Source: Siphonodentalium dalli (lineage: Eukaryota; Mollusca; Scaphopoda; Gadilida; Siphonodentaliidae). From it: a DNA stretch of 64,000 bases. The notes below the pieces were generated by a model. The model was not told the DNA's origin, did no database searches, and saw only the letters and a program-made list of their open reading frames with translations. The stretch lies in contig CP136062.1 in NCBI GenBank assembly GCA_032622095.1, positions 154,996,875-155,060,874 on the forward strand, read 5' to 3'. Positions 5,651 to 33,924 of the stretch are shown here, in pieces. The stretch's first letter is position 1; every line of letters starts with the position of its first letter. The translations under genes were made by a program, and so were the position numbers.

Positions 5651-5731
5651 TTAAATTTACAGGCAGTTTTTGTTTGACTGGCCATGGGAGAGGGACCAGG
5701 ACACAAGCTTTCCAAGTGTTGAAAATTTCCA

Positions 5732-8884: not shown

Positions 8885-8888
8885 AGAT
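8885..8888. repeat. Left AGAT target-site duplication
   Basis: AGAT directly precedes the left LTR and is repeated at 13553-13556 after the right LTR. The undisturbed partner arm has a single copy (ATCT at 2891-2894), confirming a 4-bp duplication. Confidence 0.85.
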
Positions 8889-13552: not shown

Positions 13553-13736
13553 AGATGTCTTGAAGCGAAAAGTGCTATGATCGCGCTTATCAATAAAATC
13601 ACTTTGGGGGATTTCCTCCTCGAATTCTCTTTCCGCCCGAACAAATACCAAGGGAGCAACTCATGAGATGATACATTTACAGGTAATCCGATTAAGCACC
13701 CATCAACTCATGAGATGATACATTTACAGGTAATCC

Positions 13737-14135: not shown

Positions 14136-14396
14136 TTAAATTACTAGTAGGACTTGTTTCTGGGATACTCTTCACTTATTTTCCCCCACATCTAGCACGC
14201 TGAACCAAATTACAAGGGTTTGTTCGCTCAAACCACAGAGGAGCGGACCGCTAGATAAATACCTGTTGTTTCTAATACCACATCAAGTCACACTCAGAAG
14301 TATGTGCAACTCTGTAATGTTTGCTCCGCATATTTGCATGGAAATCCCCATTCAAAATTGGTCATTTGACCTCCCCTGAATTATTTCACGCTGTTT

Positions 14397-15812
14397 ATGC
14401 ATTGTCATATTTATCCACGCTATCAACATTCTTCATTCCAGGACAGTTGTTTACAAATTAACTGCAAACCAGGACACGTACCACTGAATGGAATGTGTGT
14501 TACACCTTATATATCCACATCGCGTATTCCAGTCGACATAAGAATATACAGTCCCTGTGGAGTAACCTATCTGGATGTAAACAGTACAGAAATGGAATTC
14601 GTTGGACAGTTTATTTCTCAACATTTATTGTCATTATATGGTGGATCCAACAGCTGTATTCATCGAACAACTAAAATACATTTATCGAACCAGGTGTCGG
14701 TTACTGGAGATATCCGCCGGTTTGCATGTCGTGCGTTTGGTTTAGCTGATATACCCACAATCAAGTTGATAGAAATGAATACCTGGCTTGAAACAAATGC
14801 TTTTGAAATCAGCACGAACGGAAGCGTTTCTGTCATACACAATAAGAGCCAGTTATCAAATGAGACATGCCATGTGTCCAATAACTCTCAGCAATCAACC
14901 CCCTTCGATTGCTCGACTGTTATTATCACCAAGGAACAGAAAAATTTCCTTGATGCCTTTGGAGGAATCAGTTCCGTACTGAAGAACATTTCCAAAGAAT
15001 CACAAGACGCGACTTCAATAAACGTATGCATTGATGATTTCAAAAGTCTAGAGCGTTTGATTAGAGATCGCAAACAAACAATGGTTTATAACTATTTCCA
15101 CGAGTCTCAAATTCTTACATGCCGACTTTTATCCGTCTCAATTACATGTTTGGGATTAACTATCGTTGTATATGCTCTTAATCCTGACCTCCACAATCTT
15201 CAAGGTCGCCTGGTTCTGAACACGGTCGTATCCCTATTGACTTCTTGCATCATTACGTTTGTAGCCAACATATTCGGATGGAACAAAAGGATTTGCTATT
15301 TCACAGGTGGCTTGTCACACTATTCGTGGCTTGCATCCCTCTGTTGGTCGACAGCAATTGGAATACAGCTGTTGCAAGATTTCGCGCCATTACAGATTCC
15401 GGAGAGCCGAAGCTTCAGCTCATTATGGAACACACTTTGGATATACAGTTGTATTTGCTATAGCTTACCTCATGTTATCGTCGCCATTTCGATGGCGCTG
15501 GACGAATCGAACACATTTGATATGCAATATGGAACAAACCAATGCTTCTTGAACAACAAGATGGCAATTGCCTTCGCATTTGCGCTGCCAGTTGTATGTG
15601 GACTGCTCGTAAACTGCGTATCTTTGGTGTACGTTGTAACTACTTACTTCATCAGATCATCGGCGATTCGCTGCAATCATTCCACATGGCCGACATTGCT
15701 GGCAGTTACTGCGAAACTATTTGTCGTCCTCAGTCTGACATGGCTGTTTGGTTTCGCTGCTACTTGGTCTGACGACACTCTGCGTTTTGTACACGTGGTC
15801 CTCAACAGCCTG
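14397..15812 (+). pseudogene. Class-B-like 7TM receptor, 5' portion, interrupted in TM7
   Basis: 472 codons of a secretin/adhesion/Methuselah-like receptor. A Cys-rich N-terminal segment (CKPGHVPLNGMC, residues 23-34) leads a likely extracellular domain with several N-x-S/T sites. Hydrophobic segments follow at about 239-261, 270-291, 302-327, 344-367, 388-418 and 433-456, and TM7 begins near 461. TM6 holds the family signature TWLFGF. No GPS cleavage motif is seen, which favours a Methuselah-like type. The frame ends with S-L, encoded by AGCCTG, where the 17.7-kb element enters. The rest of TM7 and the tail are at 33563-33742. Reading through the junction gives a chimera with 47 element-encoded residues, ending at 15956. 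The first exon boundary may be 14442 (acceptor TTCTTCATTCCAG, phase 0), with signal-peptide exons lying further upstream, so the ATG at 14397 is uncertain. Confidence 0.85.
15807..15812. repeat. Left 6-bp target-site duplication AGCCTG
   Basis: AGCCTG ends the receptor frame and directly precedes TGCTGCATAGACGCTGG. The same six bases follow the inverted terminus at 33557-33562. Confidence 0.92.
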
Positions 15813-15925
15813 TGCTGCATAGACGCTGGTTTGGGGACAAAAAGGTACATTATAGAAGTACATTGGAAGTACGGGTACATATTATACTGCCCTATTGTCT
15901 ACCGACATCAAAGGAGATCAAAGGA

Positions 15926-16011
15926 AAGTACCCCGCCCCCGCACCGTATGACGTAATGACGTTGTATGTAAACAAAGATCAAAGTACCACCGCCCCCGCA
16001 CCGTATGACGT
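15926..16011 (+). repeat. Subterminal GC-rich direct repeats with TGACGT, left end
   Basis: Two copies of a block of about 30 bp (15926-15954 and 15981-16011) share CGCCCCCGCACCGTATGACG. GATCAAAG precedes the second copy, and GATCAAAGG also occurs just before the first. Each ends in the CRE half-site TGACGT, and a further TGACGT-type half-site lies between them. Repeated subterminal motifs are typical transposase-binding sites, though enhancer or origin function is also possible. The mirror pair is at about 33358-33443. Confidence 0.7.
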
Positions 16012-16269
16012 GGCGACGCGTGGGTGTTTGAGTATACGCGTGTGTGTATTTGTATACGTCACGGTTGTGGGGGGTCCTTCGGTATATGGATGTGTACTTC
16101 GTGGGTGTGGCTATTTGACAATGGTTGTATACGCTTTCGGGCCCTTGAGAACTGTACAATGGGCAATCGTATACTTCCGTCATCGAAGTACGTCGTGTAT
16201 ACTGTTCATCAGGTACAAAGTATATTTGACAATGATGGTGTAATGAGTCATTACAATCTAACGCAATCC

Positions 16270-17079
16270 CTTACTTCCGGCGCAACGCCTGAGTCATTGG
16301 AATCTGATGCAATACTTCCGGATGAACCCTACCGGCTGACTCCACGCTTATTGGCCCAGCAGTTCTGGAACCTTCTCCGATATATCCACTTTTCTGGACC
16401 CTATTAAAAATCCCTTCATAATTGCAAAGGCATAGTACATGATCCCTTTACGTTTCATACCTGTGTCGTATGTGTTTCTTTAATTTGATACCTGTAATCG
16501 AATTCTCAGGAATAAATCAAAATGCACCGGGGGATAAAACACGTGTCAATATCCAATAAACTAAATCACAGCGATTTGTTTCCGCACACAACACAACAGG
16601 CAGACAGATTCTCGAAGCTTCGTAATTAAACACACGTTTAAGTCATTAACTGCCACGATACAGATCAACATGTCTGTTATTGAAAAATGCATGTTCCTAA
16701 CGGCTTCTGTGCAAGGGGTTTGTGAATAGAGTGGGGGGGATGAGTGTATGAGACCATCACTTCATAGATTTTCCTGGCAATCCAACTTAAAGCATTTATG
16801 AAGTATGTAGGGACACCGATCATTATACATTTTCACAAACAGATACACACTAATCGGTTCAGACTGGCGGTACACTATTCTCTTGAATTCCACATCTGTT
16901 AATAATATTTATTAAAATATATCTCTTCTGGTGCTCTATATGCTTTCTTTAATCGTTCTGCCTTACAAATCTTTACATATTACGTATCATTACGTATCAA
17001 CTCAACTCAATTATGCAATACTTCTCACAACTACCCCCTCTCCCAGCATCTCATCCCCTTTATCTCTCTCTTCTCACTC

Positions 17080-17118
<39 letters not shown>

Positions 17119-18512
17119 ATCTCTATGTCTCTCTCTCTCTGGTGTATCCCTGTAAACAAATTCTCAGAAATCATTTAGCGCATCGACCATATATATATTT
17201 CAAAATATCTAATAATACATATGCAGATTACCTCTAGGAAACAAGAATTTTCTAGAATGTGAAAAAACAATAACAGAGGGTATCTCCTATAATATAATAT
17301 TCTCAAAGTCGTCACGTGACCTGACAGTTGGGCAGTAAACTCATTAGAATCGACAACGCACTGTCTGTTTATCAAAAGCACTTGTATCACATGCTCTGCC
17401 AATGCATTTGGAATGTTCGCCATATAAGCTTCAGTTTGAATCGCTCAAGTCCATGGTCCCCATAACATGTTCTCATTTGAAGACATTTGAAGAGCGTCTG
17501 GTTTAATCTCATGGTAAAGTATTGCACAATCATTCACAGAATAGATTAATGGAATCATTCTGCAATTTTCGAAGCTTCACATTCTCCAGCCATTGCTCTG
17601 CTGTTTGAATCCACATTATTAAAAAGATTAACATCTCTCGCCCGATGCGCTATAACCTTCATCACAAACACATGTCATTAAGTGTGCTGACAGAGGCAAC
17701 AAAGCTAAGGTCTCGTCTTTCTCGCAATATATTAAACCCTCGAGTTATCTACCTTCTTGAATATTCCCCTTTAGTAAAGTAAATGATCTGTATACAGGTA
17801 ATATTACTTTCATGGTCGTATGTAACCAAACGAGGCCCCTCTCATACTCTAGCAAACATAAAAGAGTAGCGGAAGAAAGAGAGAGGGGCAGAGAGAGAGA
17901 GAGAGCCAGGCGTAGAGGTGTGTTGTTTTATGGCTATATATTTCATGCACATAGATCACATACAGTAATGCCCTAATTAATCGACCCCTTATCCACAACA
18001 GAATTATTGGTATTTTCAGGATTTAGTCGGAAATATGGCTTGCTGTCATTAATCGGAAAGCTCTCACGGGGTTATGTGTGTTTCATAACCTTGGAGACGT
18101 TCGTATCGATGTTTGGTGCTGCTAGTAAATAACCAATACTTACTTCAGGCGCAACACCTGAGTCATTGGAATTTCAATGCAATCTTTGTGTGAACCCTAA
18201 CGACTCACTCCCCGCTCATTGGACACATGTAATCTTCAACCACGCAATTTTTCTGGAACATTCTACATGTGGAAATTCCACAACATTCTATTTGACTAGT
18301 ATTGAAAATTCCTTCATAATTTCATAATGGCATCGTATATGGTCCGTTTAAAATACCTGTATGTGGCCCCTTTAAGCTATGTATCCCGACTAATGGTACA
18401 CTGTTATTTCAATGGCAAACTTGATTAAATCATCTCTAACATTCGTTATACTTTTTCTCTAACTACCACTTTACAATATGGTGTATATAATCGAACTATC
18501 AGGAATCAATCA
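16270..18512 (+). repeat. Diverged duplicated block inside left arm
   Basis: About 16270-16520 and 18146-18512 are diverged direct copies. Both start CGCAAC(G/A)CCTGAGTCATTGGAAT, then share GAACCCTA, CCTTCATAAT, a TACCTGT block and TCGAA.T.TCAGGAAT. The second copy has extra sequence. The stretch between them holds a CT microsatellite (about 17063-17145) and an unremarkable interval. The mirror pair is in the right arm. Confidence 0.55.
17063..17145. repeat. CT/TC microsatellite, left arm
   Basis: A nearly pure CT run with interruptions. The corresponding GA run in the right arm (about 32231-32305) differs in length and interruptions, an expected fast-evolving difference between arms. Confidence 0.85.
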
Positions 18513-19414
18513 ACGCCTTACCCATAGATATTTGAACATACAACTGAACGCATTTAGGGTCACATACATTAAATGTGTTTTGGGCGGGTCAAATCGTGAC
18601 CCCGACATGACGTTCACCTTTAAAATGGTAAATTCAAGGTTAAATCGCGCAATTCTCCGAAAATCAGAGGGAAACATCCCGGACGAAGTAGGGTCCACCA
18701 GCTACTATTATATATTTCTAGATTTAGTTACAAACTAAATACCTGTATATTGTACAAAGAAATGTTTGACAAATATATCTGTATCAATATTACCATACGG
18801 GTCATTAAAATAGATATGACGAAACAAATTTTGAAGGGTGCATGTATCAGGTAAATTTTTATATTTCAAATGATGACAGGAATGCGGAAAGTTGAAGTAC
18901 CTACGTAATACTGGCTATCCGAATGAAGAGATATACATGTATATAAAAACCAAAATAGAAGATGACTGCTGGCGACAATGTTTTCCAAAAAATTTCAAAG
19001 CATTCGATAGCTCCCATCTAGTTGTCAGCCCGAAGATCAATATAAAGTGTGGTGACTATCAGATGAGGGATATGTCTGTACAGTTGCTAAACAATTCAGT
19101 CATGCAAAAGAGGATCAAACAGTAAGATACCAAATTGCTGCCTGTGGTAATGTTTTTTAACGAAATTCGGGAAAATTAGATTACCCTCACCCTGGTTATC
19201 CAGAAGATCGTTGTGGAATCTGGTGACGATCGGACAGGGGGTGTCGTCTGTAGGATCAACCAAATTATTTAGCCATAAAATAGTAAAATTCAAGAACACC
19301 GCTGGCAGTGATGTCGCAAATCTATGTTAAACGACAGTAGCATTATAACAGAGTGGTCACTTACCTTCAAGTAAAAAAAAGTACCATTATGTTCTCATTT
19401 TCTATCTTATCATT

Positions 19415-19790
19415 ATGAAATTTGTCACGTGCGTGCCAGACGTCACTTAGAGGTCAGCACCATATTTTGGTTCGAATATTTTTCAATAACATGGCTGCCA
19501 GACTATTTCGAATTTTAGATATTTAAAATAAAATGTCAGGCTTAATTCACGCCGAACCACGGGTTCTCGGTTGAGAAACTTGGCCTCCAGTTGTCATCTT
19601 TTATTTAAGTCATAAATGCACTTCGAATTTTAAAGTGTCATAGTGGGCTTATGTTTCCACCAATCATTATGCAATTTGGCGAGTACGTGCCCGACGTCAC
19701 TCAGATGTTATCACGAGATTTTAGTTCGAATCATACGAAAAACATGGCCGCTATTTTGTTTTTAAGTGATAAAACTACAGAACGAGGTGC
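19415..19790 (+). repeat. Two diverged copies of a ~120-bp unit, left arm
   Basis: About 19415-19520 and 19660-19770 share ATCATTATG.AATTTG, CGTGCC.GACGTCACT, TTCGAAT and AACATGGC.GC in the same order. The mirror pair is at about 29600-29950. No coding frame spans both copies. Confidence 0.55.
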
Positions 19791-20019
19791 AGAGTTTGGT
19801 CGTGTCGTGGTATTTCTCAAGTCATTCTCATTCTGTAGTGTTATTACAAAAATCACAAGATAATCGAAGAAGGTCATGCCAGAGAATAATTTCGACATGG
19901 TTTTCTACACGTGGGTCGGCTTTTCCATAGCAGTAAAACTGAACGCATCTTTTAATAATTTACACATTTTATTATTTATCAAACACAATCCATTTATTAC
20001 ATTACATAATAATTACAGT

Positions 20020-20541
20020 TTAAAACGAATCAGGTGTATATGTTTTGCATAATTCCGGTGAACAGAAACTACACATTAAAAAGCCAAGCTGATTTTTTTT
20101 ATGATCCTCTTGCATGTAGCAGGGTACTAAAGTTTGTAGTTCCGGTACAGCCACAGTGACGTCATTAATGGTGGACATCAACTGTTCAAATTCTGAGTGG
20201 TTGAGAGTTACACCTGTCTTCGTAGGGCAAAGTGTCTCACTGTCTTTCGGGTAAAAGAATTTTCGGATATGTACAACACGGTGTTCATGATCATAAGTCA
20301 CGTGTTCATTATGTCCGATATGTATCCTTTCCAAAGAAGATCTGCTTTGTAAATGTTCATACACTTTCTGTGCGTTATCAGCTAATTCCAGCCACTGTTG
20401 TAATCGCAGGCAGGCGCCGAATTTAGTAGGGAACTTCCCATCGTTCCATATTCTGATGTCTATATTTTTTATGCTTTTATATTCACCGACGGTAAGGTAT
20501 CTATCCCGTCCTAAGTGTTTTGTGAAAATTTTAGAATTCAT
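20020..20541 (-). CDS. Double PC4-like domain protein, left-arm copy
   Basis: 173 residues, identical in translation to the right-arm copy at 28827-29348. Residues 11-60 (GRDRYLTVGEYKSIKNIDIR, then PTKFG, then a W-containing segment) match the ssDNA-binding fold of the transcription coactivator PC4/p15. Residues 75-128 repeat the pattern (VHIRKFFYPKDS, then PTKTGVTLN), giving a second module. The C-terminal part (about 129-173) is unassigned and has a Cys-x2-Cys pair. It presumably binds single-stranded DNA and acts in transcription or replication. It lies 326 bp downstream of the BIR-RING gene on the same strand, with its own CRE/TATA promoter and AATAAA signals. No introns are seen. Confidence 0.75.
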   Translation of the reverse strand: MNSKIFTKHLGRDRYLTVGEYKSIKNIDIRIWNDGKFPTKFGACLRLQQWLELADNAQKVYEHLQSRSSLERIHIGHNEHVTYDHEHRVVHIRKFFYPKDSETLCPTKTGVTLNHSEFEQLMSTINDVTVAVPELQTLVPCYMQEDHKKNQLGFLMCSFCSPELCKTYTPDSF

Positions 20542-20599
20542 GGTGTCGTTTCGATGAACGCTGAACTGAAAATGTCGGAGGCGCGTGGATGTATTACGT

Positions 20600-20619
20600 T
20601 TATACCCTATATGACGTCA
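20600..20619 (-). promoter_or_regulatory. CRE plus TATA promoter of PC4-like gene, left arm
   Basis: Read on the minus strand, TGACGTCA (20612-20619) stands just upstream of TATAAA (20600-20605). The PC4-like start codon is about 60 bp downstream. It is the exact mirror of the right-arm promoter. Confidence 0.6.
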
Positions 20620-20867
20620 TTGGGCGGTCCCATCACAACCGTTTCAAAGTATATAATCAATCAGATTGCCCCCCGGAATCGTATTAGTCAAATATGGAAG
20701 GGCCAATCATGTTTCGATCAGAGGGAACTCTCAGACAGTGGCTCGGAAGTACATTAGCTAAATACAGAATAAAGGGGTTTCGTGGTAAACTGTCTCGGCC
20801 TATAGGAAAGGGCCGGAAATGACACGCAACCGTGATTCAGGGTATTCATAACGCAGGTATGAATCAT

Positions 20868-21593
20868 TTAACCAAAAGTTTTGGCATAGGCACGCACTAC
20901 GCTTCTGCACAAGGGACAAGTCTCAGAACCGAGCGCGCACATGCCACACATTGCTACGTGTCCACATGGTAAAATCACACAGTTTTTATTCTTCTCTAGA
21001 CAAATGATACATTTGCATTCTTCAGAATCGTCTACTGCCGTATCAGGCCAGTCATCTTCATAGGAACCAGACAGTCTCTCATCGTTTATTTCAGTCATTT
21101 CTTCGAAATTAACGGTAAGGTCATCTACTGAAAATGTATTCATGTCTTGAACAGAGGCACTATCCACGGGACGTTGCAATGAAACATTTGCTGGTACATC
21201 GGGGATTTCCATTAAATATCTCGGTCTGTTCCACTGTTTATACCTATCTTCAGGCAGGAAACGTTGCAAATAATTGAGATAGCTACAATTTGGAAAGAAA
21301 CGGTAATGTTCAGTTCGAGGATCATCTCTCTTTTCCCATTGCCACAACCTACATCCGCAACTATAACATATGGTTTTATCAGCGGTCTTTGTGAAAAAGA
21401 AACCAGCTCCAGCTATTTTAGCAGCCTCCACGGGCGAGGTCCAGTTTACGAAAGAAGCTAATCTCGAGTGAAAATTTCGATACTCTGGGTATGACGGTTT
21501 CCAAGCCACAGTAAGACCATACACGTTTAAAAGTTCTGGTATCGTGCTTACACTATTATCGCTCGAATCAGCGGCGTGCGGCGGGATATCCAT
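20868..21593 (-). CDS. BIR-RING inhibitor-of-apoptosis protein, left-arm copy
   Basis: 241 residues with one BIR domain (about 41-109) and a C-terminal RING. BIR zinc ligands are C76, C79, H96 and C103 with canonical spacing (C-x2-C-x16-H-x6-C). RING ligands are C195, C198, C210, H212, C216, C219, C226 and C229, and it ends AYAKTFG. The family binds caspases or IAP-antagonist proteins through BIR and acts as a ubiquitin ligase through RING. Residue 207 is Ile here and Leu in the right-arm copy, the only protein difference I see. An in-frame GTG precedes the ATG; I use the ATG. It is intronless and followed at 326 bp by the PC4-like gene. Similar proteins occur in expanded mollusc families and in some large DNA viruses. 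Confidence 0.9.
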   Translation of the reverse strand: MDIPPHAADSSDNSVSTIPELLNVYGLTVAWKPSYPEYRNFHSRLASFVNWTSPVEAAKIAGAGFFFTKTADKTICYSCGCRLWQWEKRDDPRTEHYRFFPNCSYLNYLQRFLPEDRYKQWNRPRYLMEIPDVPANVSLQRPVDSASVQDMNTFSVDDLTVNFEEMTEINDERLSGSYEDDWPDTAVDDSEECKCIICLEKNKNCVILPCGHVAMCGMCALGSETCPLCRSVVRAYAKTFG

Positions 21594-21599
21594 CACCTG

Positions 21600-24181
21600 T
21601 TATTTCTCCCCCACCCTGACAATCAGTATGAACCTGTAAATGTTAGTTCAAGCCTTATAACAATGGTAATATATAGAAACACGTTCATTGGCTGCTGTAT
21701 TAACATTATTATTATTGTTTATATAGATGTACTTATTTTTCTTTTTACAGATGGAAAATTTCCAGGCTGAACAATTTCATCGCAATGCGTGGATTCGAAA
21801 GTAGTGACCTTATGAGGGGAATTAATGCGAGAAGACAACGAATGACTCATTAAATAGGTCACTATACAACAGACTGGTTGAGTTGGAACCATAATTCCCA
21901 ATTTACAAAACCCTCTGTTTATTCGAGGAAATCCGCTAACTGAGACACGAGTTTCACGTCATGATGCAAAATCACGCAATCTGTGGCCCTAAATTTGCAC
22001 GTACCTAGTGAGCATTTGATATCTAATAGCGATCAATGAAGTATTTAGTTCTTATCATAATATTTATAACAGCCAATCAAAATCCGTTGATGGATTTAAC
22101 TATATAATACAAGGACAAACGGAATGAAAACATCTGTGCACCAACTTTATGTATTCCAGCCATAGTTCATTCATATTATTACTCTAAAATCTCCATTACA
22201 TGGCAAAACCAAAGGACCCATTTGATGTAGACTAGTATATAAATACTTACTTCATGTATTCTTTTCATCAATGATATGTATTGTAACACCTATAAATATA
22301 GTCTGTTATACAGAGGAAACATTACCCACAGCCTCATGCCACAAAAGGCCTACTATGTGAACACATGTGTATATTAATTCCATATTTTCTTGTCAAAACG
22401 CTCTATTATATAACGATGTATTCGTTAATCGTTCCTTTATCTTTATTGTTGTTAATTTATAGCATTGTTAGTAGAAATTTAATCTAAACTCGATAATATA
22501 TTGAAAATAATTCGTCAATACTGCTTTATTGGTGGTAACTGAACTTATTACATCATGTATGCAACTAAAACAAGCGAGACAACTCATAAATTTGTAATAG
22601 TTCTCATGTCTATGGCGGTTCACACAGTGTACATTTTCATTACCATTTAATGCGCACATTACTGATTTATGCATATGAACGCGTTTCCATGTTTCTTGAA
22701 GCAAATCCGTTACATATAAATACGTTATGACGTAAATTAAGTGTCATTTTCACTGTTAAATCACGTACAATATTAGCAAACGTGGTATTTCACACAAAAC
22801 TATATCGAAACGGCCATTTATCAAACGAAATGACATGTCTGGGATCAAACGTGCTAATCAGGCCTGTGTTTTCGCCAACAAGGGAGTTTGATTTTGGTTG
22901 TATATGATGGTTCAGTCATTATATGATACCTAATCGGTTGCACATGGTGCTGTCTAGGGTATATACTGTGCATGTATATTAAATGCTCCATTGATGTTAG
23001 GAGTGTTTCTTAATTATGCACTCTCTTTACTATGACTCAATTTTATTGTGTACATATCATAACTGGCATTATATGTATTTTTTATCATTTAATGTAATAA
23101 TTATTTTAAAAATACCGTGTATATCACAATACTTTACTATAGCCGATGTGTGTCTAGAAGCTTATTCATGCTATCATCACATACACTTGAATTAGATACT
23201 AACTATCGAGTTATGATTTTCCCTGTATTTTCATGCAATATTCGTGAATGGCAACAATCAGCAGTTCTTTTCTGATGAATGTCAAACGAGATTTCTCACT
23301 CCAATGCCCCCCTCTAACTGACATTTCGATAACCTTTATTGAATCTTAAACACTGTAATTTCTCTAATTTCTCCACGTTACTTCTCCTATACACGTAGTT
23401 CGATCAGCTGTCAATGTCATGTCTGGTGTTGCTGTTGTGTTCTTAATGGACCATCTGCTAACTAACGATGCGTGTCAGGTATGCATACTATTTGTTTTAA
23501 TATGCCTGGTATACATGTATTCTCAGACACTCACTCTCAGATGTATCTCTTCGGTAAAACACATAGATATGATATAGCTGTGCAGTAAGGTTCGTCCATG
23601 ACATTACTTCATTCCGACATTCTGATACATAGACCAATCACATAAAAGTAAAGAATGTACTCCCAATACGTTAGGCATATCTTTTAATCTGAGTGATGTC
23701 ACCACAAAACGCGAGGTTCAAAAACTTCAAAAATAGTTAAAAGTACACATTTTTTTATTTCGAATATCATTATTTATGGTCAATTTCGTGTTATGAAATG
23801 GACCATTTTATAAACGCGTAATATGTGATTAAAAAAACGGCTATTTGATAAAAATTTTAAACGCTATTATCACTATATTTGGAATATAAAAAACGTTGTA
23901 TTTGACGAAGTATGACAATGCAAAATGACTACTTTTATAAACGCGAATTTGAAAACACTAATATCGGAACGAATTTTAAACTAATTTCGTGTTATGAAAT
24001 GACTCATTTTATAATCGCGGTCTAGTCAAACGGGGAAACTAGTATGTATGTGTAAGTCGACTTAACGCGGACCTCATTAAACCCCACCCCTAAACACCTC
24101 CCCCTGTCCGGATGAAACCCTGACCAAAAAAAGGGGGATGGGGGGAGGGGGGCGCGCCGTTTTTTATGACAAAAAAATATG
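21600..24181. other. Inner part of left arm, no convincing gene
   Basis: AT-rich sequence upstream of the BIR-RING gene. A TTTATA (21718-21723) would be a TATA box for that gene on the minus strand. Short open frames of under 90 codons exist but show no known domain. The last 60 bp form a G-rich strand ending GGCGCGCC next to the unique centre. Confidence 0.45.
24124..24181 (+). other. G-rich inner arm boundary, left
   Basis: AGGGGGATGGGGGGAGGGGG followed by GCGCGCC and a short AT stretch lies at the inner end of the left arm. The plus strand has enough G runs for a quadruplex. The mirror tract is at 25178-25240. Confidence 0.6.
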
Positions 24182-25177
24182 ATGTAAGGGTGACTAAATA
24201 TAATATTGTATACAATATGTATGAAAAATGGTAAATATGGTATATTTGCCTATACCCAGGATGATATTGGAACCATAACTATGGATGTAAAACTGACTAA
24301 GGTATTGAATTATAGCTATATATTTATTCAGCCATAGAACCGCAACATTTTGTACACTTGAAGTACGATTCTTGATACTCCTTATGTTTATAGAATTTTC
24401 CTATTCGTATTGTCCAATATTTATTACAGTAGCACAGAAACCAGTCACTCCCAATATGCTATTTCACAGAACGTTTCTCTAATATCGCTTTTTTGATGTC
24501 ATCACCATATGAAGACATATTGTACCATAGATCCTTGTCCATATAAATTCCATATTTAATTGGCAAAATACCATCTTATAATTGCCATATGTTTATTTTC
24601 ACCCTTTTCTTCAGTAACTGTTAGGTATCTCTGTTGGCCATACATTGGTTTCACAATCTTCTGGTGATATAGCTCCATGCTTCGCAATGGTTTCTCAGCA
24701 AGTGATGGGGAGTATGTGATTTGGGGTGTGGGGGTGGCTACCCCGGGATGGTCGATAGCCCCTTTCCTTCACCCCAGTGACTGTGATGTCAAATGCACCT
24801 CATTTATATATCTTAATATTAACCAATGGCAAACACTTATATGTGACATGTTTGGACAAGTCCAGTAATACTTCTCTGACTCTTTCCAGGAATATAAACA
24901 CACCTTCTCAAACCTAATGTTTTAGTACAATGTTCCAAAGTATTAGTGTATAACTCATCTTAACCTTTGATATAAGGTAGTCCACCTCCTCAAGTTGCTA
25001 GTGTGTAAATGTATGTTCCAAATTGTGCCGCTGCCATTACAGCAACTAAAATAAGAAAAACAACGACAACAACCAAACTAACATCAACAACAGCATCAAA
25101 AAGCAACCACAGCAACAACAATTACAACAATATGGTGAACGATTTGGTATGAAACTGGTTGCATGAAAAATATCTGG
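24182..25177. other. Unique centre of the palindrome (996 bp)
   Basis: The only non-duplicated part of the 17.7-kb element. It is AT-rich, with a CAA/ACA-rich low-complexity stretch at about 25040-25135. The longest open frame (24677-24868) has no recognisable motif and looks random. I see no gene, tRNA or inverted symmetry within it. Confidence 0.6.
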
Positions 25178-27770
25178 CATATTTTTTTGTCATAAAAAAC
25201 GGCGCGCCCCCCTCCCCCCATCCCCCTTTTTTTGGTCAGGGTTTCATCCGGACAGGGGGAGGTGTTTAGGGGTGGGGTTTAATGAGGTCCGCGTTAAGTC
25301 GACTTACACATACATACTAGTTTCCCCGTTTGACTAGACCGCGATTATAAAATGAGTCATTTCATAACACGAAATTAGTTTAAAATTCGTTCCGATATTA
25401 GTGTTTTCAAATTCGCGTTTATAAAAGTAGTCATTTTGCATTGTCATACTTCGTCAAATATAACGTTTTTTATATTCCAAATATAGTGATAATAGCGTTT
25501 AAAATTTTATCAAATAGCCGTTTTTTTAATCACATATTACGCGTTTGTAAAATGGTCCATTTCATAACACGAAATTGACCATAAATAATGATATTCGAAA
25601 TAAAAAAATGTGTACTTTTAACTATTTTTGAAGTTTTTGAACCTCGCGTTTTGTGGTGACATCACTCAGATTAAAAGATATGCCTAACGTATTGGGAGTA
25701 CATTCTTTACTTTTATGTGATTGGTCTATGTATCAGAATGTCGGAATGAAGTAATGTCATGGACGAACCTTACTGCACAGCTATATCATATCTATGTGTT
25801 TTACCGAAGAGATACATCTGAGAGTGAGTGTCTGAGAATACATGTATACCAGGCATATTAAAACAAATAGTATGCATACCTGACACGCATCGTTAGTTAG
25901 CAGATGGTCCATTAAGAACACAACAGCAACACCAGACATGACATTGACAGCTGATCGAACTACGTGTATAGGAGAAGTAACGTGGAGAAATTAGAGAAAT
26001 TACAGTGTTTAAGATTCAATAAAGGTTATCGAAATGTCAGTTAGAGGGGGGCATTGGGGTGAGAAATCTCGTTTGACATTCATCAGAAAAGAACTGCTGA
26101 TTGTTGCCATTCACGAATATTGCATGAAAATACAGGGAAAATCATAACTCGATAGTTAGTATCTAATTCAAGTGTATGTGATGATAGCATGAATAAGCTT
26201 CTAGACACACATCGGCTATAGTAAAGTATTGTGATATACACGGTATTTTTAAAATAATTATTACATTAAATGATAAAAAATACATGTAATGCCAGTTATG
26301 ATATGTACACAATAAAATTGAGTCATAGTAAAGAGAGTGCATAATTAAGAAACACTCCTAACATCAATGGAGCATTTAATATACATGCACAGTATATACC
26401 CTAGACAGCACCATGTGCAACCGATTAGGTATCATATAATGACTGAACCATCATATACAACCAAAATCAAACTCCCTTGTTGGCGAAAACACAGGCCTGA
26501 TTAGCACGTTTGATCCCAGACATGTCATTTCGTTTGATAAATGGCCGTTTCGATATAGTTTTGTGTGAAATACCACGTTTGCTAACATTGTACGTGATTT
26601 AACAGTGAAAATGACACTTAATTTACGTCATAACGTATTTATATGTAACGGATTTGCTTCAAGAAACATGGAAACGCGTTCATATGCATAAATCAGTAAT
26701 GTGCGCATTAAATGGTAATGAAAATGTACACTGTGTGAACCGCCATAGACATGAGAACTATTACAAATTTATGAGTTGTCTCGCTTGTTTTAGTTGCATA
26801 CATGATGTAATAAGTTCAGTTACCACCAATAAAGCAGTATTGACGAATTATTTTCAATATATTATCGAGTTTAGATTAAATTTCTACTAACAATGCTATA
26901 AATTAACAACAATAAAGATAAAGGAACGATTAACGAATACATCGTTATATAATAGAGCGTTTTGACAAGAAAATATGGAATTAATATACACATGTGTTCA
27001 CATAGTAGGCCTTTTGTGGCATGAGGCTGTGGGTAATGTTTCCTCTGTATAACAGACTATATTTATAGGTGTTACAATACATATCATTGATGAAAAGAAT
27101 ACATGAAGTAAGTATTTATATACTAGTCTACATCAAATGGGTCCTTTGGTTTTGCCATGTAATGGAGATTTTAGAGTAATAATATGAATGAACTATGGCT
27201 GGAATACATAAAGTTGGTGCACAGATGTTTTCATTCCGGTTGTCCTTGTATTATATAGTTAAATCCATCAACGGATTTTGATTGGCTGTTATAAATATTA
27301 TGATAAGAACTAAATACTTCATTGATCGCTATTAGATATCAAATGCTCACTAGGTACGTGCAAATTTAGGGCCACAGATTGCGTGATTTTGCATCATGAC
27401 GTGAAACTCGTGTCCAAGGACCTGTCAGTTAGCGGATTTCCTCGAATAAACAGAGGGTTTTGTAAATTGGGAATTATGGTTCCAACTCAACCAGTCTGTT
27501 GTATAGTGACCTATTTAATGAGTCATTCGTTGTCTTCTCGCATTAATTCCCCTCATAAGGTCACTACTTTCGAATCCACGCATTGCGATGAAATTGTTCA
27601 GCCTGGAAATTTTCCATCTGTAAAAAGAAAAATAAGTACATCTATATAAACAATAATAATAATGTTAATACAGCAGCCAATGAACGTGTTTCTATATATT
27701 ACCATTGTTATAAGGCTTGAACTAACATTTACAGGTTCATACTGATTGTCAGGGTGGGGGAGAAATAACA
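25178..27770. other. Inner part of right arm, no convincing gene
   Basis: Mirror of 21600-24181. Short frames at 26654-26890 and 27383-27649 match no domain I know. The second overlaps the 10-bp arm-specific insertion, which changes its length between arms, arguing against a conserved protein. Confidence 0.45.
27645..27650 (+). promoter_or_regulatory. Candidate TATA box of BIR-RING gene, right arm
   Basis: TATAAA 125 bp upstream of the BIR-RING start codon, within AT-rich sequence. It is plausible but could be chance. The mirror is at 21718-21723. Confidence 0.3.
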
Positions 27771-27774
27771 GGTG

Positions 27775-28500
27775 ATGGATATCCCGCCGCACGCCGCTGA
27801 TTCGAGCGATAATAGTGTAAGCACGATACCAGAACTTTTAAACGTGTATGGTCTTACTGTGGCTTGGAAACCGTCATACCCAGAGTATCGAAATTTTCAC
27901 TCGAGATTAGCTTCTTTCGTAAACTGGACCTCGCCCGTGGAGGCTGCTAAAATAGCTGGAGCTGGTTTCTTTTTCACAAAGACCGCTGATAAAACCATAT
28001 GTTATAGTTGCGGATGTAGGTTGTGGCAATGGGAAAAGAGAGATGATCCTCGAACTGAACATTACCGTTTCTTTCCAAATTGTAGCTATCTCAATTATTT
28101 GCAACGTTTCCTGCCTGAAGATAGGTATAAACAGTGGAACAGACCGAGATATTTAATGGAAATCCCCGATGTACCAGCAAATGTTTCATTGCAACGTCCC
28201 GTGGATAGTGCCTCTGTTCAAGACATGAATACATTTTCAGTAGATGACCTTACCGTTAATTTCGAAGAAATGACTGAAATAAACGATGAGAGACTGTCTG
28301 GTTCCTATGAAGATGACTGGCCTGATACGGCAGTAGACGATTCTGAAGAATGCAAATGTATCATTTGTCTAGAGAAAAATAAAAACTGTGTGCTTTTACC
28401 ATGTGGACACGTAGCAATGTGTGGCATGTGCGCGCTCGGTTCTGAGACTTGTCCCTTGTGCAGAAGCGTAGTGCGTGCCTATGCCAAAACTTTTGGTTAA
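27775..28500 (+). CDS. BIR-RING inhibitor-of-apoptosis protein, right-arm copy
   Basis: 241 residues, same as the left-arm copy except Leu at residue 207 inside the RING. BIR ligands C76, C79, H96, C103 and all eight RING ligands are intact. The linker (about 110-190) is acidic and low in structure. As a single-BIR protein of 241 residues it is compact, like short invertebrate and viral IAPs. The start chosen is the ATG directly after an in-frame GTG. No AATAAA follows within the 326 bp before the PC4-like gene, so the two may share a transcript end. The absence of introns suggests retroposed or viral ancestry; this is inference. Confidence 0.9.
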   Translation: MDIPPHAADSSDNSVSTIPELLNVYGLTVAWKPSYPEYRNFHSRLASFVNWTSPVEAAKIAGAGFFFTKTADKTICYSCGCRLWQWEKRDDPRTEHYRFFPNCSYLNYLQRFLPEDRYKQWNRPRYLMEIPDVPANVSLQRPVDSASVQDMNTFSVDDLTVNFEEMTEINDERLSGSYEDDWPDTAVDDSEECKCIICLEKNKNCVLLPCGHVAMCGMCALGSETCPLCRSVVRAYAKTFG

Positions 28501-28748
28501 ATGATTCATACCTGCGTTATGAATACCCTGAATCACGGTTGCGTGTCATTTCCGGCCCTTTCCTATAGGCCGAGACAGTTTACCACGAAACCCCTTTATT
28601 CTGTATTTAGCTAATGTACTTCCGAGCCACTGTCTGAGAGTTCCCTCTGATCGAAACATGATTGGCCCTTCCATATTTGACTAATACGATTCCGGGGGGC
28701 AATCTGATTGATTATATACTTTGAAACGGTTGTGATGGGACCGCCCAA

Positions 28749-28769
28749 TGACGTCATATAGGGTATAAA
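28749..28769 (+). promoter_or_regulatory. CRE plus TATA promoter of PC4-like gene, right arm
   Basis: A full palindromic CRE, TGACGTCA (28749-28756), is followed by TATAAA (28764-28769). A possible initiator TCAGTT lies at 28799-28804, just before the PC4-like ATG at 28827. The compact layout resembles viral or stress-inducible promoters; binding by CREB/ATF factors is inferred from the motif only. Confidence 0.6.
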
Positions 28770-28826
28770 CGTAATACATCCACGCGCCTCCGACATTTTC
28801 AGTTCAGCGTTCATCGAAACGACACC

Positions 28827-29348
28827 ATGAATTCTAAAATTTTCACAAAACACTTAGGACGGGATAGATACCTTACCGTCGGTGAATATAAAAGCATCAA
28901 AAATATAGACATCAGAATATGGAACGATGGGAAGTTTCCTACTAAATTCGGCGCCTGCCTGCGATTACAACAGTGGCTGGAATTAGCTGATAACGCACAG
29001 AAAGTGTATGAACATTTACAAAGCAGATCTTCTTTGGAAAGGATACATATCGGACATAATGAACACGTGACTTATGATCATGAACACCGTGTTGTACATA
29101 TCCGAAAATTCTTTTACCCGAAAGACAGTGAGACACTTTGCCCTACGAAGACAGGTGTAACTCTCAACCACTCAGAATTTGAACAGTTGATGTCCACCAT
29201 TAATGACGTCACTGTGGCTGTACCGGAACTACAAACTTTAGTACCCTGCTACATGCAAGAGGATCATAAAAAAAATCAGCTTGGCTTTTTAATGTGTAGT
29301 TTCTGTTCACCGGAATTATGCAAAACATATACACCTGATTCGTTTTAA
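28827..29348 (+). CDS. Double PC4-like domain protein, right-arm copy
   Basis: 173 residues, identical to the left-arm protein. Two PC4/p15-like modules (about 11-60 and 75-128) each have a basic beta-strand segment (NIDIRIW; VHIRKFF), a P-T-K turn and a following helix (LRLQQWLELA; LNHSEFEQLM). Human PC4 has one such domain and dimerises to bind ssDNA; two modules in one chain could mimic the dimer. AATAAA signals at 29370-29375 and 29395-29400 follow the stop codon closely. Assignment rests on pattern recognition, not a search. Confidence 0.75.
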   Translation: MNSKIFTKHLGRDRYLTVGEYKSIKNIDIRIWNDGKFPTKFGACLRLQQWLELADNAQKVYEHLQSRSSLERIHIGHNEHVTYDHEHRVVHIRKFFYPKDSETLCPTKTGVTLNHSEFEQLMSTINDVTVAVPELQTLVPCYMQEDHKKNQLGFLMCSFCSPELCKTYTPDSF

Positions 29349-29369
29349 ACTGTAATTATTATGTAATGT

Positions 29370-29400
29370 AATAAATGGATTGTGTTTGATAAATAATAAA
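29370..29400 (+). terminator. Polyadenylation signals of PC4-like gene
   Basis: Two AATAAA hexamers (29370-29375 and 29395-29400), 22 and 47 bp after the stop codon. The mirrored pair follows the left-arm gene at about 19968-19998. Confidence 0.6.
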
Positions 29401-30068
29401 ATGTGTAAATTATTAAAAGATGCGTTCAGTTTTACTGCTATGGAAAAGCCGACCCACGTGTAGAAAACCATGTCGAAATTATTCTCTGGCATGACCTTCT
29501 TCGATTATCTTGTGATTTTTGTAATAACACTACAGAATGAGAATGACTTGAGAAATACCACGACACGACCAAACTCTGCACCTCGTTCTGTAGTTTTATC
29601 ACTTAAAAACAAAATAGCGGCCATGTTTTTCGTATGATTCGAACTAAAATCTCGTGATAACATCTGAGTGACGTCGGGCACGTACTCGCCAAATTGCATA
29701 ATGATTGGTGGAAACATGAGCCCACTATGACACTTTAAAATTCGAAGTGCATTTATGACTTAAATAAAAGATGACAACTGGAGGCCAAGTTTCTCAACCG
29801 AGAACCCGTGGTTCGGCGTGAATTAAGCCTGACATTTTATTTTAAATATCTAAAATTCGAAATAGTCTGGCAGCCATGTTATTGAAAAATATTCGAACCA
29901 AAATATGGTGCTGACCTCTAAGTGACGTCTGGCACGCACGTGACAAATTTCATAATGATAAGATAGAAAATGAGAACATAATGGTACTTTTTTTTACTTG
30001 AAGGTAAGTGACCACTCTGTTATAATGCTACTGTCGTTTAACATAGATTTGCGACATCACTGCCAGCG

Positions 30069-30480
30069 GTGTTCTTGAATTTTACTATTTTATGGCTAAA
30101 TAATTTGGTTGATCATACAGACGACACCCCCTGTCCGATCGTCACCAGATTCCACAACGATCTTCTGGATAACCAGGGTGAGGGTAATCTAATTTTCCCG
30201 AATTTCGTTAAAAAACATTACCACAGGCAGCAATTTGGTATCTTACTGTTTGATCCTATTTTGCATGACTGAATTGTTTAGCAACTGTACAGACATATCC
30301 CTCATCTGATAGTCACCACACTTTATATTGATCTTCGGGCTGACAACTAGATGGGAGCTATCGAATGCTTTGAAATTTTTTGGAAAACATTGTCGCCAGC
30401 AGTCATCTTCTATTTTGGTTTTTATATACATGTATATCTCTTCATTCGGATAGCCAGTATTACGTAGGTACTTCAACTTT
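30069..30480 (+). repeat. Two diverged copies of a ~110-bp unit, right arm
   Basis: About 30130-30235 and 30300-30420 share GAT.GTCACCA, GATCTTC.GG and AAAACATT with a following CAG, in order. One copy sits in an open frame (30069-30272), but the second copy has stops in the same phase, so coding is doubtful. The left-arm mirror is at about 18890-19300. Confidence 0.45.
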
Positions 30481-31946
30481 CCGCATTCCTGTCATCATTT
30501 GAAATATAAAAATTTACCTGATACATGCACCCTTCAAAATTTGTTTCGTCATATCTATTTTAATGACCCGTATGGTAATATTGATACAGATATATTTGTC
30601 AAACATTTCTTTGTACAATATACAGGTATTTAGTTTGTAACTAAATCTAGAAATATATAATAGTAGCTGGTGGACCCTACTTCGTCCGGGATGTTTCCCT
30701 CTGATTTTCGGAGAATTGCGCGATTTAACCTTGAATTTACCATTTTAAAGGTGAACGTCATGTCGGGGTCACGATTTGACCCGCCCAAAACACATTTAAT
30801 GTATGTGACCCTAAATGCGTTCAGTTGTATGTTCAAATATCTATGGGTAAGGCGTTGATTGATTCCTGATAGTTCGATTATATACACCATATTGTAAAGT
30901 GGTAGTTAGAGAAAAAGTATAACGAATGTTAGAGATGATTTAATCAAGTTTGCCATTGAAATAACAGTGTACCATTAGTCGGGATACATAGCTTAAAGGG
31001 GCCACATACAGGTATTTTAAACGGACCATATACGATGCCATTATGAAATTATGAAGGAATTTTCAATACTAGTCAAATAGAATGTTGTGGAATTTCCACA
31101 TGTAGAATGTTCCAGAAAAATTGCGTGGTTGAAGATTACATGTGTCCAATGAGCGGGGAGTGAGTCGTTAGGGTTCACACAAAGATTGCATTGAAATTCC
31201 AATGACTCAGGTGTTGCACCTGAAGTAAGTATTGGTTATTTACTAGCAGCACCAAACATCGATACGAACGTCTCCAAGGTTATGAAACACACATAACCCC
31301 GTGAGAGCTTTCCGATTAATGACAGCAAGCCATATTTCCGACTAAATCCTGAAAATACCAATAATTCTGTTGTGGATAAGGGGTCGATTAATTAGGGCAT
31401 TACTGTATGTGATCTATGTGCATGAAATATATAGCCATAAAACAACACACCTCTACGCCTGGCTCTCTCTCTCTCTCTCTGCCCCTCTCTCTTTCTTCCG
31501 CTACTCTTTTATGTTTGCTAGAGTATGAGAGGGGCCTCGTTTGGTTACATACGACCATGAAAGTAATATTACCTGTATACAGATCATTTACTTTACTAAA
31601 GGGGAATATTCAAGAAGGTAGATAACTCGAGGGTTTAATATATTGCGAGAAAGACGAGACCTTAGCTTTGTTGCCTCTGTCAGCACACTTAATGACATGT
31701 GTTTGTGATGAAGGTTATAGCGCATCGGGCGAGAGATGTTAATCTTTTTAATAATGTGGATTCAAACAGCAGAGCAATGGCTGGAGAATGTGAAGCTTCG
31801 AAATTTGCAGAATGATTCCATTAATCTATTCTGTGAATGATTGTGCAATACTTTACCATGAGATTAAACCAGACGCTCTTCAAATGTCTTCAAATGAGAA
31901 CATGTTATGGGGACCATGGACTTGAGCGATTCAAACTGAAGCTTAT

Positions 31947-32142
31947 ATGGCGAACATTCCAAATGCATTGGCAGAGCATGTGATACAAGTGCTTTTGATA
32001 AACAGACAGTGCGTTGTCGATTCTAATGAGTTTACTGCCCAACTGTCAGGTCACGTGACGACTTTGAGAATATTATATTATAGGAGATACCCTCTGTTAT
32101 TGTTTTTTCACATTCTAGAAAATTCTTGTTTCCTAGAGGTAA
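31947..32142 (+). other. Possible small exon, unassigned (also left arm 17227-17423)
   Basis: An ATG opens a frame of about 65 codons (MANIPNALAEHVIQVLLINR at its start) ending at a good splice-donor-like CTAGAG|GTAATC near 32139. I recognise no domain, and no downstream exon is evident before the element terminus. It could be a short exon of an element gene or a chance frame. Confidence 0.2.
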
Positions 32143-32230
32143 TCTGCATATGTATTATTAGATATTTTGAAATATATATATGGTCGATGCGCTAAATGAT
32201 TTCTGAGAATTTGTTTACAGGGATACACCA

Positions 32231-32251
32231 GAGAGAGAGAGACATAGAGAT

Positions 32252-32294
<43 letters not shown>

Positions 32295-32305
32295 GAAGAG
32301 AGAGA
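32231..32305. repeat. GA microsatellite, right arm
   Basis: Mirror of the CT run at 17063-17145, with different length and interruptions. Confidence 0.85.
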
Positions 32306-33357
32306 TAAAGGGGATGAGATGCTGGGAGAGGGGGTAGTTGTGAGAAGTATTCCATAATTGAGTTGAGTTGATACGTAATGATACGTAATATGTAAAGATT
32401 TGTAAGGCAGAACGATTAAAGAAAGCATATAGAGCACCAGAAGAGATATATTTTAATAAATATTATTAACAGATGTGGAATTCAAGAGAATAGTGTACCG
32501 CCAGTCTGAACCGATTAGTGTGTATCTGTTTGTGAAAATGTATAATGATCGGTGTCCCTACATACTTCATAAATGCTTTAAGTTGGATTGCCAGGAAAAT
32601 CTATGAAGTGATGGTCTCATACACTCATCCCCCCCACTCTATTCACAAACCCCTTGCACAGAAGCCGTTAGGAACATGCATTTTTCAATAACAGACATGT
32701 TGATCTGTATCGTGGCAGTTAATGACTTAAACGTGTGTTTAATTACGAAGCTTCGAGAATCTGTCTGCCTGTTGTGTTGTGTGCGGAAACAAATCGCTGT
32801 GATTTAGTTTATTGGATATTGACAGGTGTTTTATCCCCCGGTGCATTTTGATTTATTCCTGAGAATTCGATTACAGGTATCAAATTAAAGGAAACACATA
32901 CGACACAGGTATGAAACGTAAAGGGATCATGTACTATGCCTTTGCAATTATGAAGGGATTTTTAATAGGGTCCAGAAAAGTGGATATATCGGAGAAGGTT
33001 CCAGAACTGCTGGGCCAATAAGCGTGGAGTCAGCCGGTAGGGTTCATCCGGAAGTATTGCATCAGATTCCAATGACTCAGGCGTTGCGCCGGAAGTAAGG
33101 GATTGCGTTAGATTGTAATGACTCATTACACCATCATTGTCAAATATACTTCGTACCTGATGAACAGTATACACGACGTACTTCGATGACGGAAGTATAC
33201 GATTGCCCATTGTACAGTTCTCAAGGGCCCGAAAGCGTATACAACCATTGTCAAATAGCCACACCCACGAAGTACACATCCATATACCGAAGGACCCCCC
33301 ACAACCGTGACGTATACAAATACACACACGCGTATACTCAAACACCCACGCATCGCC

Positions 33358-33443
33358 ACGTCATACGGTGCGGGGGCGGTGGTACTTTGATCTTTGTTTA
33401 CATACAACGTCATTACGTCATACGGTGCGGGGGCGGGGTACCT
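33358..33443 (-). repeat. Subterminal GC-rich direct repeats with TGACGT, right end
   Basis: Mirror of 15926-16011: two ACGTCATACGGTGCGGGGGC blocks about 110 bp inside the right terminus, ending in GTAC and separated by a CRE half-site. Confidence 0.7.
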
Positions 33444-33556
33444 TCCTTTGATCTCCTTTGATGTCGGTAGACAATAGGGCAGTATAATATGTACCCGTAC
33501 TTCCAATGTACTTCTATAATGTACCTTTTTGTCCCCAAACCAGCGTCTATGCAGCA

Positions 33557-33562
33557 AGCCTG
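33557..33562. repeat. Right 6-bp target-site duplication AGCCTG
   Basis: Follows the terminal GCAGCA of the element directly and matches 15807-15812. Confidence 0.92.
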
Positions 33563-33742
33563 CAAGGGGCCTTGGTTTTCGTTGATATGGTTGTTGGGAG
33601 CAGCTCTGTGAGGAAGTGCATGTTGGATAAGATATCGCGAAAGAACGCATCCACCACACCTCAAAGAAAGCAAAGTGACCGACCGCTAGACAACTTATAT
33701 CGACACGCACCACACCACACATGGAGTGGAAATTACGTCTGA
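33563..33742 (+). pseudogene. 7TM receptor, 3' portion (rest of TM7 and tail)
   Basis: 59 codons and a stop that continue the receptor frame exactly where it stops at 15812. The sequence QGALVFVDMVVGSSSVRKC completes TM7, whose family pattern is LN-x-LQG. A basic, Ser/Thr-containing cytoplasmic tail follows. Without the insert the receptor frame would be 531 codons with no internal stop. In the present sequence this piece is open from an ATG inside the element (33506), which would add 17 element-encoded residues. AATAAA at 33956-33961 is the likely polyadenylation signal. Confidence 0.88.
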
Positions 33743-33754
33743 CCAGATGAACGG

Positions 33755-33924
33755 GAATCAATCCGAGACCGAGGATACTACATTGTGAATCAATCCGAGA
33801 CCGAGAATACTACATTATGAATCAATCCGAGACCGAGAATACTACATTGTGAATCAATCCGAGACCGAGAATACTACATTATGAATCAATCCGAGACCGA
33901 GAATACTACATTGTGAATCAATCC
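33755..33924. repeat. 32-bp tandem array in receptor 3' UTR
   Basis: Five full 32-bp units starting GAATCAATCCGAGACCGAG (33755, 33787, 33819, 33851, 33883) plus a 10-bp partial unit. Units end alternately ATTGT and ATTAT, so the real period is 64 bp for part of the array. Confidence 0.92.

What the first reader, a model, noticed from the sequence alone, without database searches (positions are those of the whole stretch)
15807..33562. A 17.7-kb, almost fully palindromic mobile element that carries genes in both arms
The sequence shows 8.37-kb inverted arms, a 996-bp centre, clean TGCTGCA.../...TGCAGCA ends and a perfect 6-bp duplication. The insertion lies inside coding sequence, and its removal restores the frame, so the outer boundaries are exact. 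Terminal repeats making up about 94% of an element this size are outside anything I can name. The genes sit inside the repeats, so each insertion delivers two copies.
Basis: partly seen in the sequence, partly recalled or inferred. Interest (0 to 1): 0.95.

Follow-up and report, generated by a model that had tools for sequence, protein, structure and literature searches.

The report
Palindromic virus-like element with heat-shock sites
A 17.7-kb piece of mobile DNA, almost a perfect mirror image of itself, has inserted into an animal gene; it carries two copies of an apoptosis-inhibitor-type gene and of a virus-type DNA-binding-protein gene, and holds many heat-shock control motifs.

Summary
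Window 15813-33556 is a 17,744-bp insertion with inverted arms of 8,369 and 8,379 bp (99.76% identical, 20 substitutions, 5 indels), a 996-bp centre and a perfect 6-bp duplication (AGCCTG). Joining the flanks restores a 531-aa receptor frame.

Each arm has two recognisable genes: a BIR-RING inhibitor of apoptosis (IAP) and a tandem-PC4 protein, whose predicted fold best matches MOSUB of a lancelet adintovirus (E 5.9e-7; Polintoviricetes). The 6-bp duplication, length and doubled-trinucleotide ends (TGC)2//(GCA)2 fit Polintons. No polymerase, integrase or capsid domain was found in one arm plus centre, so it is at most a non-autonomous derivative, and 8.4-kb repeats lie far outside the range reported for vertebrate Mavericks.

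Unexpectedly, all ten perfect three-unit heat-shock elements of the 64-kb window lie in this element (five per arm; about 0.1 expected per arm), none in 46 kb of flanks.

Untested: copy number. The own-genome search did not complete (20 tries), so "each insertion delivers two copies" rests on one copy. Host not identified. Verdict: real; new variant of a known kind; helper-dependent mobility is inferred.

The parts
15807..15812 (.). target-site duplication AGCCTG, left copy
15813..24181 (+). left inverted arm, 8,369 bp; starts TGCTGC = (TGC)2
15813..16460 (+). terminal region: higher G+C (46.7% in the first 600 bp), several TGACGT motifs, one heat-shock element; promoter-like by eye, no transcript tested
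16363..18263 (+). five perfect three-unit heat-shock elements of the left arm, starting at 16363, 16609, 17245, 17754, 18251
20020..20541 (-). tandem-PC4 (MOSUB-like) gene, 173 aa, left copy; TATAAA about 58 bp and TGACGTCA about 71 bp upstream of the ATG
20868..21596 (-). BIR-RING inhibitor-of-apoptosis gene, 242 aa from a GTG (241 from the first ATG), left copy; BIR-RING part uninterrupted, a spliced 5' exon is not excluded
24182..25177 (.). unique 996-bp centre, CpG observed/expected 0.35, no recognisable protein domain
25178..33556 (-). right inverted arm, 8,379 bp; ends ...GCAGCA
27772..28500 (+). BIR-RING gene, right copy; one synonymous difference and one Ile/Leu from the left copy
28827..29348 (+). 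tandem-PC4 gene, right copy; two synonymous differences, same protein
31105..33006 (-). five mirrored heat-shock elements of the right arm, starting at 31105, 31604, 32113, 32747, 32994
33557..33562 (.). target-site duplication AGCCTG, right copy
14397..15812 (+). interrupted host gene, 7-TM receptor of the secretin family (Pfam 7tm_2), part before the insertion
33563..33742 (+). remaining 3' part of the interrupted receptor frame, stop codon included

Best explanation
It is a non-autonomous, palindromic derivative of a Polinton/adintovirus-type linear DNA element. Shown: outer ends, 6-bp duplication, two recognisable genes per arm, no recognisable core gene in one arm plus centre, fold link of the PC4 protein to adintovirus MOSUB, cluster of heat-shock motifs. 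Inferred: one end of a linear parent genome was copied in inverted orientation, for instance by template switching or snap-back of a displaced strand during protein-primed replication, giving a mirror-image genome with the same replication/integration signal at both ends and a total length near that of a normal Polinton. It would then move only when a helper element supplies polymerase and integrase that recognise the ends. The IAP would keep the cell alive during replication, the PC4 protein would bind single-stranded DNA or act on transcription, and the heat-shock elements would couple transcription to stress. Genes point away from the centre, so their read-through would not make a hairpin RNA across the palindrome.
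For: 6-bp duplication, as for Polintons and for GingerRoot/IS3EU. Fold search of the PC4 model (mean pLDDT 87.8): the only viral hit with E up to 0.001 (744 hits with E up to 10, best 50 seen) is MOSUB of Branchiostoma lancelet adintovirus (E 5.9e-7, TMq 0.64, 20% identity over 174 columns); a second adintovirus MOSUB is rank 6 (E 0.022); the lancelet virus is filed in Polintoviricetes. Length 17,744 bp against 12,723-24,620 bp (mean 16,862) for intact vertebrate Mavericks; their ends are short repeated units (AGT)2, (AG)3, (AC)3A, here (TGC)2. Both genes are open in both arms; 3 of 4 coding differences are synonymous. Heat-shock elements 5 per arm, 0 in 46,244 bp of flanks; these bear on regulation, not on the Polinton link.
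Against: No polymerase, integrase, ATPase or capsid domain in six Pfam-scanned frames of the left arm plus centre (diverged or broken genes can be missed, and the right arm was scanned only as its two ORFs). Vertebrate Maverick repeats are 46-1,447 bp, here 8.4 kb. The end letters are none of the published motifs, and a doubled trinucleotide arises by chance once in 64. About 7.1 of 8.4 kb per arm has no recognised gene, so the parent would need a very large non-core end region. The centre is CpG-depleted (0.35) while the arms are not (0.97-0.98), which suggests another history than a simple loop. The link to MOSUB is by predicted fold; sequence searches found no named virus. One copy only; no autonomous partner seen.
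Confidence: 0.5

Rival explanations
1. A normal Polinton-like element inserted here, and later one half was copied over the other in place (break-induced replication or gene conversion starting in the short terminal repeats), so the palindrome is a local accident, not a mobile form.
For: Outer ends and duplication would look the same; only one copy was seen (20 unanswered genome searches). The 996-bp centre with different CpG content could be a remnant of the original body.
Against: The surviving half would have to lack all recognisable core genes, although intact vertebrate Mavericks carry eight of them in two modules. The same point weighs, less directly, on my best reading.
Confidence: 0.2
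2. A foldback-like cut-and-paste DNA transposon (GingerRoot/IS3EU-type or an undescribed family with 6-bp duplications and TG..CA ends) that captured a MOSUB gene and an IAP gene as cargo.
For: GingerRoot makes 6-bp duplications and occasionally has TG..CA ends (PMC10045372, passages). Very long inverted repeats are typical of foldback elements (recalled).
Against: No transposase domain. IS3EU ends are always TA..TA. Capture of a viral MOSUB gene then needs an extra step.
Confidence: 0.2
3. Assembly artefact: a fold-back or collapsed read duplicated one arm.
For: Long palindromes are hard to assemble (general knowledge) and no reads could be checked.
Against: Arms differ by 20 substitutions and 5 indels spread along them; both outer junctions carry the same 6-bp duplication inside one reading frame; the centre is unique.
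Confidence: 0.05
4. An unrelated integrated DNA virus with large terminal repeats (for example herpes-like or pox-like) of which only an end-to-end deletion form remains.
For: IAP genes occur in several large DNA viruses (recalled); an entomopoxvirus with 8.4-kb inverted terminal repeats exists (PMC8363768, passage).
Against: A precise 6-bp duplication implies an integrase or transposase; the best viral fold match is an adintovirus; the second, a pandoravirus protein, has E 0.0037.
Confidence: 0.05

Closest known systems
Polinton/Maverick elements and adintoviruses (Polintoviricetes)
   Same: 6-bp duplication, total length, short repeated unit at the very ends, a MOSUB-like gene by predicted fold
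   Different: 8.4-kb instead of 46-1,447-bp terminal repeats (range reported for vertebrates), different end letters, no core gene found, genes duplicated within the repeats
GingerRoot / IS3EU DNA transposons
   Same: 6-bp duplication; TG..CA ends occur occasionally in GingerRoot
   Different: no transposase found; IS3EU ends are TA..TA
Foldback-type elements such as Galileo or Drosophila FB (recalled; Galileo seen only in a search listing)
   Same: inverted repeats make up most of the element
   Different: target duplications of 7-9 bp (recalled), arms much shorter (recalled), no full-length genes in both arms that I know of
Heat-shock-element-carrying transposons: Helitrons of Caenorhabditis (PMC6927752, abstract) and ONSEN of Arabidopsis (PMC3907296, abstract and author summary)
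   Same: heat-shock elements embedded in mobile DNA
   Different: other transposon classes; response to heat shown by experiment there, only by motif here
Expanded, partly intronless IAP genes of bivalves (hard clam PMC7831173; oysters PMC8917759; passages)
   Same: uninterrupted BIR-RING coding sequence next to a PC4-domain gene; the clam paper reports a BIR plus PC4 'G3' type in hard clam and mussels and DNA transposons enriched around IAP genes
   Different: those papers infer retroposition and tandem duplication; no such carrier element is described in the passages seen; the host here is unknown

Membership tests
Polinton/Maverick/adintovirus | 6-bp target-site duplication | tested here: met
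   AGCCTG on both sides, frame restored
Polinton/Maverick/adintovirus | protein-primed polymerase B, integrase, ATPase, capsid and protease genes | tested here: not met
   six-frame Pfam scan of left arm plus centre gives, above curated cut-offs, only BIR, RING and PC4
Polinton/Maverick/adintovirus | terminal inverted repeats of 46-1,447 bp (vertebrate range) | tested here: not met
   8,369 and 8,379 bp; range from PMC8097293
Polinton/Maverick/adintovirus | end motif of a short repeated unit | tested here: inconclusive
   (TGC)2//(GCA)2 fits the pattern but is none of the three motifs in PMC8097293; 1 in 64 by chance
Polinton/Maverick/adintovirus | element length 12.7-24.6 kb (vertebrate range) | tested here: met
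   17,744 bp (range)
Polinton/Maverick/adintovirus | accessory gene of the group (MOSUB); supportive, not defining | tested here: met
   predicted-fold match E 5.9e-7 to an adintovirus MOSUB; no sequence-level match to a named virus
GingerRoot / IS3EU | 6-bp duplication | tested here: met
   family features
GingerRoot / IS3EU | TA..TA ends (IS3EU), mostly TA..TA or occasionally TG..CA (GingerRoot) | tested here: inconclusive
   ends TG..CA
GingerRoot / IS3EU | integrase-like transposase gene | tested here: not met
Dada | no terminal inverted repeats, insertion in small-RNA genes | tested here: not met
   8.4-kb repeats; target is a receptor coding sequence; family features from PMC3706591 (passages)
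Family of mobile elements in this host | further copies with the same ends and own duplications | not tested
   own-genome search unanswered in 20 tries; none elsewhere in the window with up to 2 substitutions in 14 bases
Heat-inducible element | transcription rises on heat shock | not testable with these tools
   only motif evidence

The most novel reading that the evidence does not exclude
A heat-stress-inducible, helper-dependent 'defective virus' form of a Polinton that persists as a mobile palindrome in an animal genome, delivers paired IAP and MOSUB genes at each insertion, and is one of the vehicles behind the scattered intronless IAP genes and BIR-plus-PC4 genes of bivalves, where intronless copies have been put down to retroposition.
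Probability: 0.18. Interest if true: 0.87.

Novelty: new variant of a known kind. Interest (0 to 1): 0.62.

Why it matters
If the palindrome itself moves, it would be a symmetric satellite of a Polinton-type virus fixed in an animal genome, comparable to mirror-image defective genomes of other linear DNA viruses (recalled). It would offer a concrete, testable carrier for the spread of apoptosis inhibitors in invertebrate genomes, now attributed to retroposition and tandem duplication (PMC7831173, PMC8917759; passages), and a direct link between heat stress and the activity of such an element.

Tried and rejected
Rejected: chance inverted repeat (8.4 kb at 99.76%). Rejected: composite of two complete elements, because no inner end is seen: the first 14 bases of the end, with up to 2 substitutions and on both strands, occur in the window only at the two outer ends (the count had looked at one strand of the left arm plus centre only). 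Rejected: known structured RNA (0 of 4227 Rfam families at gathering score in the window).

The heat-shock motif was noticed by eye in one promoter-like block and then counted, so the test is after the fact. Two of the five sites (16363, 18251) lie in internally repeated blocks of one arm and may share an origin; the three others alone still exceed the expectation of about 0.1 per arm. The two arms are copies of each other, so their counts are not independent.

Full report
What is there. The window holds an insertion at 15813-33556 with inverted arms 15813-24181 and 25178-33556 and a unique 996-bp centre. The arms are 99.76% identical outside gaps, with 20 substitutions and 5 indel events spread along them, among them a 10-bp indel at 21943. 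The ends are TGCTGCATAGACGCTGG and its complement, flanked by AGCCTG on both sides. The insertion cuts an open frame of the secretin-family receptor type (Pfam 7tm_2, E 9.3e-14). With the element and one AGCCTG left out, the frame continues to 531 aa.

Genes. Six-frame Pfam scans of the left arm plus centre give, above curated cut-offs, only a BIR domain, a RING domain and PC4 domains. The right-arm copies of both ORFs give the same domains; the rest of the right arm was not scanned, being a 99.76% copy. Two ORFs account for the domains: a 242-aa BIR-RING protein, counted from a GTG directly before an ATG (20868-21596, minus; 27772-28500, plus), and a 173-aa protein with two PC4 stretches (20020-20541, minus; 28827-29348, plus). 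The zinc-binding residues of BIR and RING look intact by eye. Between the two copies of each gene there are 4 differences in 1,251 bp: 3 synonymous and 1 Ile/Leu. This leans towards selection on the proteins but is only four changes. The PC4 gene has a TATAAA about 58 bp and a TGACGTCA site about 71 bp before its ATG; TGACGTCA occurs four times in the window, twice in each arm and not in the flanks. The BIR-RING part is uninterrupted; a splice-acceptor-like TTTACAG 37 bp before the ORF (by eye) and a 79-aa ORF further upstream (no Pfam domain) mean that a 5' exon is not excluded.

Which enzyme moved it. A 6-bp duplication with TG..CA ends points to a retroviral-type integrase: Polintons make 6-bp duplications, GingerRoot and usually IS3EU too, IS3EU with TA..TA ends and GingerRoot occasionally with TG..CA (PMC10045372, passages). 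Vertebrate Mavericks have short repeated units at their ends, (AGT)2, (AG)3 or (AC)3A, lengths of 12,723-24,620 bp and repeats of 46-1,447 bp (PMC8097293, section 7 and passages). The present ends read (TGC)2//(GCA)2 and the length is 17,744 bp, which fits; the repeat length does not. Repeated end units are what the sliding-back start of protein-primed replication would leave (recalled). No enzyme was recognised, so whatever moved it probably came from elsewhere.

Heat-shock elements. Perfect three-unit heat-shock elements (TTCnnGAAnnTTC or the alternate phase) occur ten times in the 64-kb window, five in each arm, all in the outer 2.5 kb of the arms; none lies in the 46,244 bp of flanks. Expected per arm: 0.095 from first-order resampling (200 runs) and 0.14 from second-order resampling (400 runs, maximum 2). 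As controls, the same pattern was counted for all 32 pairs of a triplet and its complement: GAA/TTC gives 5 in the left arm, the next best 1; in the flanks ATA/TAT gives 9 and AAA/TTT 6, GAA/TTC 0. With spacings 0 to 6, only spacing 2 gives any GAA/TTC site in the arm; the flanks give 1, 0, 0, 1, 0, 0 and 4. The motif was noticed first by eye, and two of the five lie in repeated blocks. Heat-shock elements inside mobile DNA are reported to work in Caenorhabditis Helitrons (PMC6927752, abstract) and ONSEN (PMC3907296, abstract). Whether they work here is untested.

The centre. CpG observed/expected is 0.35 (11 against 31.4) in the centre; the lowest of the 996-bp windows of the left arm is 0.60, and in the flanks 8 of 443 overlapping windows, starting at 4301 to 5001, are as low. 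The centre therefore seems to have another history than the arms, perhaps captured or older methylated DNA. I have no good explanation.

How it most likely works. My best reading is a mirror-image, helper-dependent derivative of a Polinton-type element. Formation by inverted copying of one end would place the signals for replication and integration at both ends and keep the length near the normal genome size. This step is inferred. The strongest rivals are that a normal element inserted and was made symmetric in place, and that an unknown cut-and-paste transposon captured the genes. The test is a second copy and a helper; the own-genome search was asked 20 times and never answered.

Link to known puzzles. 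In hard clam, 51 of 159 IAP genes are reported intronless and read as retroposed, DNA transposons are enriched around IAP genes, and a BIR-plus-PC4 gene type is called an innovation of hard clam and mussels (PMC7831173, passages). Here an uninterrupted BIR-RING gene lies 326 bp upstream of a PC4 gene on the same strand inside a mobile element. A gene predictor could fuse the two. That such elements explain part of the bivalve IAP spread is a hypothesis; the host of this window was not identified, and no bivalve genome could be searched.

Verdict. The feature is real and well bounded. It is not filed as a Polinton, because core genes and repeat length fail; by one gene, duplication, length and end pattern it looks derived from one. 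New variant of a known kind, interest 0.62.

Noticed in passing
2188-14243: A second inverted-repeat structure: arms of about 2.5 kb (2188-4681 against 7087-8888 plus 13553-14243; 92.7 and 94.6% identical in the two pieces), no matching duplication seen at its ends; no Pfam domain in the three forward frames of 2188-8888.
   Followed up: partly
8889-13552: LTR-like element inside that structure: 458-bp direct repeats 99.3% identical, TGTAAT...CTACA ends, flanked by AGAT on both sides; no Pfam domain in the one frame scanned.
   Followed up: partly
4301-5996: Strongly CpG-depleted stretch (observed/expected down to 0.18), the only one in the flank windows as low as the centre of the palindrome.
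   Followed up: no
46528-47958 and 54274-55866: Two diverged direct copies (pieces 80-90% identical) of an unidentified dispersed repeat.
   Followed up: no
50962-51282: Weak match to reverse transcriptase (RVT_1, E 0.0031, below the curated cut-off), perhaps a decayed retroelement.
   Followed up: no
33755-33924: Tandem array of a 32-bp unit, 5.3 copies at 96% match, about 12 bp after the end of the interrupted receptor frame.
   Followed up: no
16270-16450 and 18139-18360: Promoter-like block present twice within each arm (82.6% over the best 86 bp), each with a heat-shock element and an ATTGG box, but no long ORF seen downstream.
   Followed up: partly
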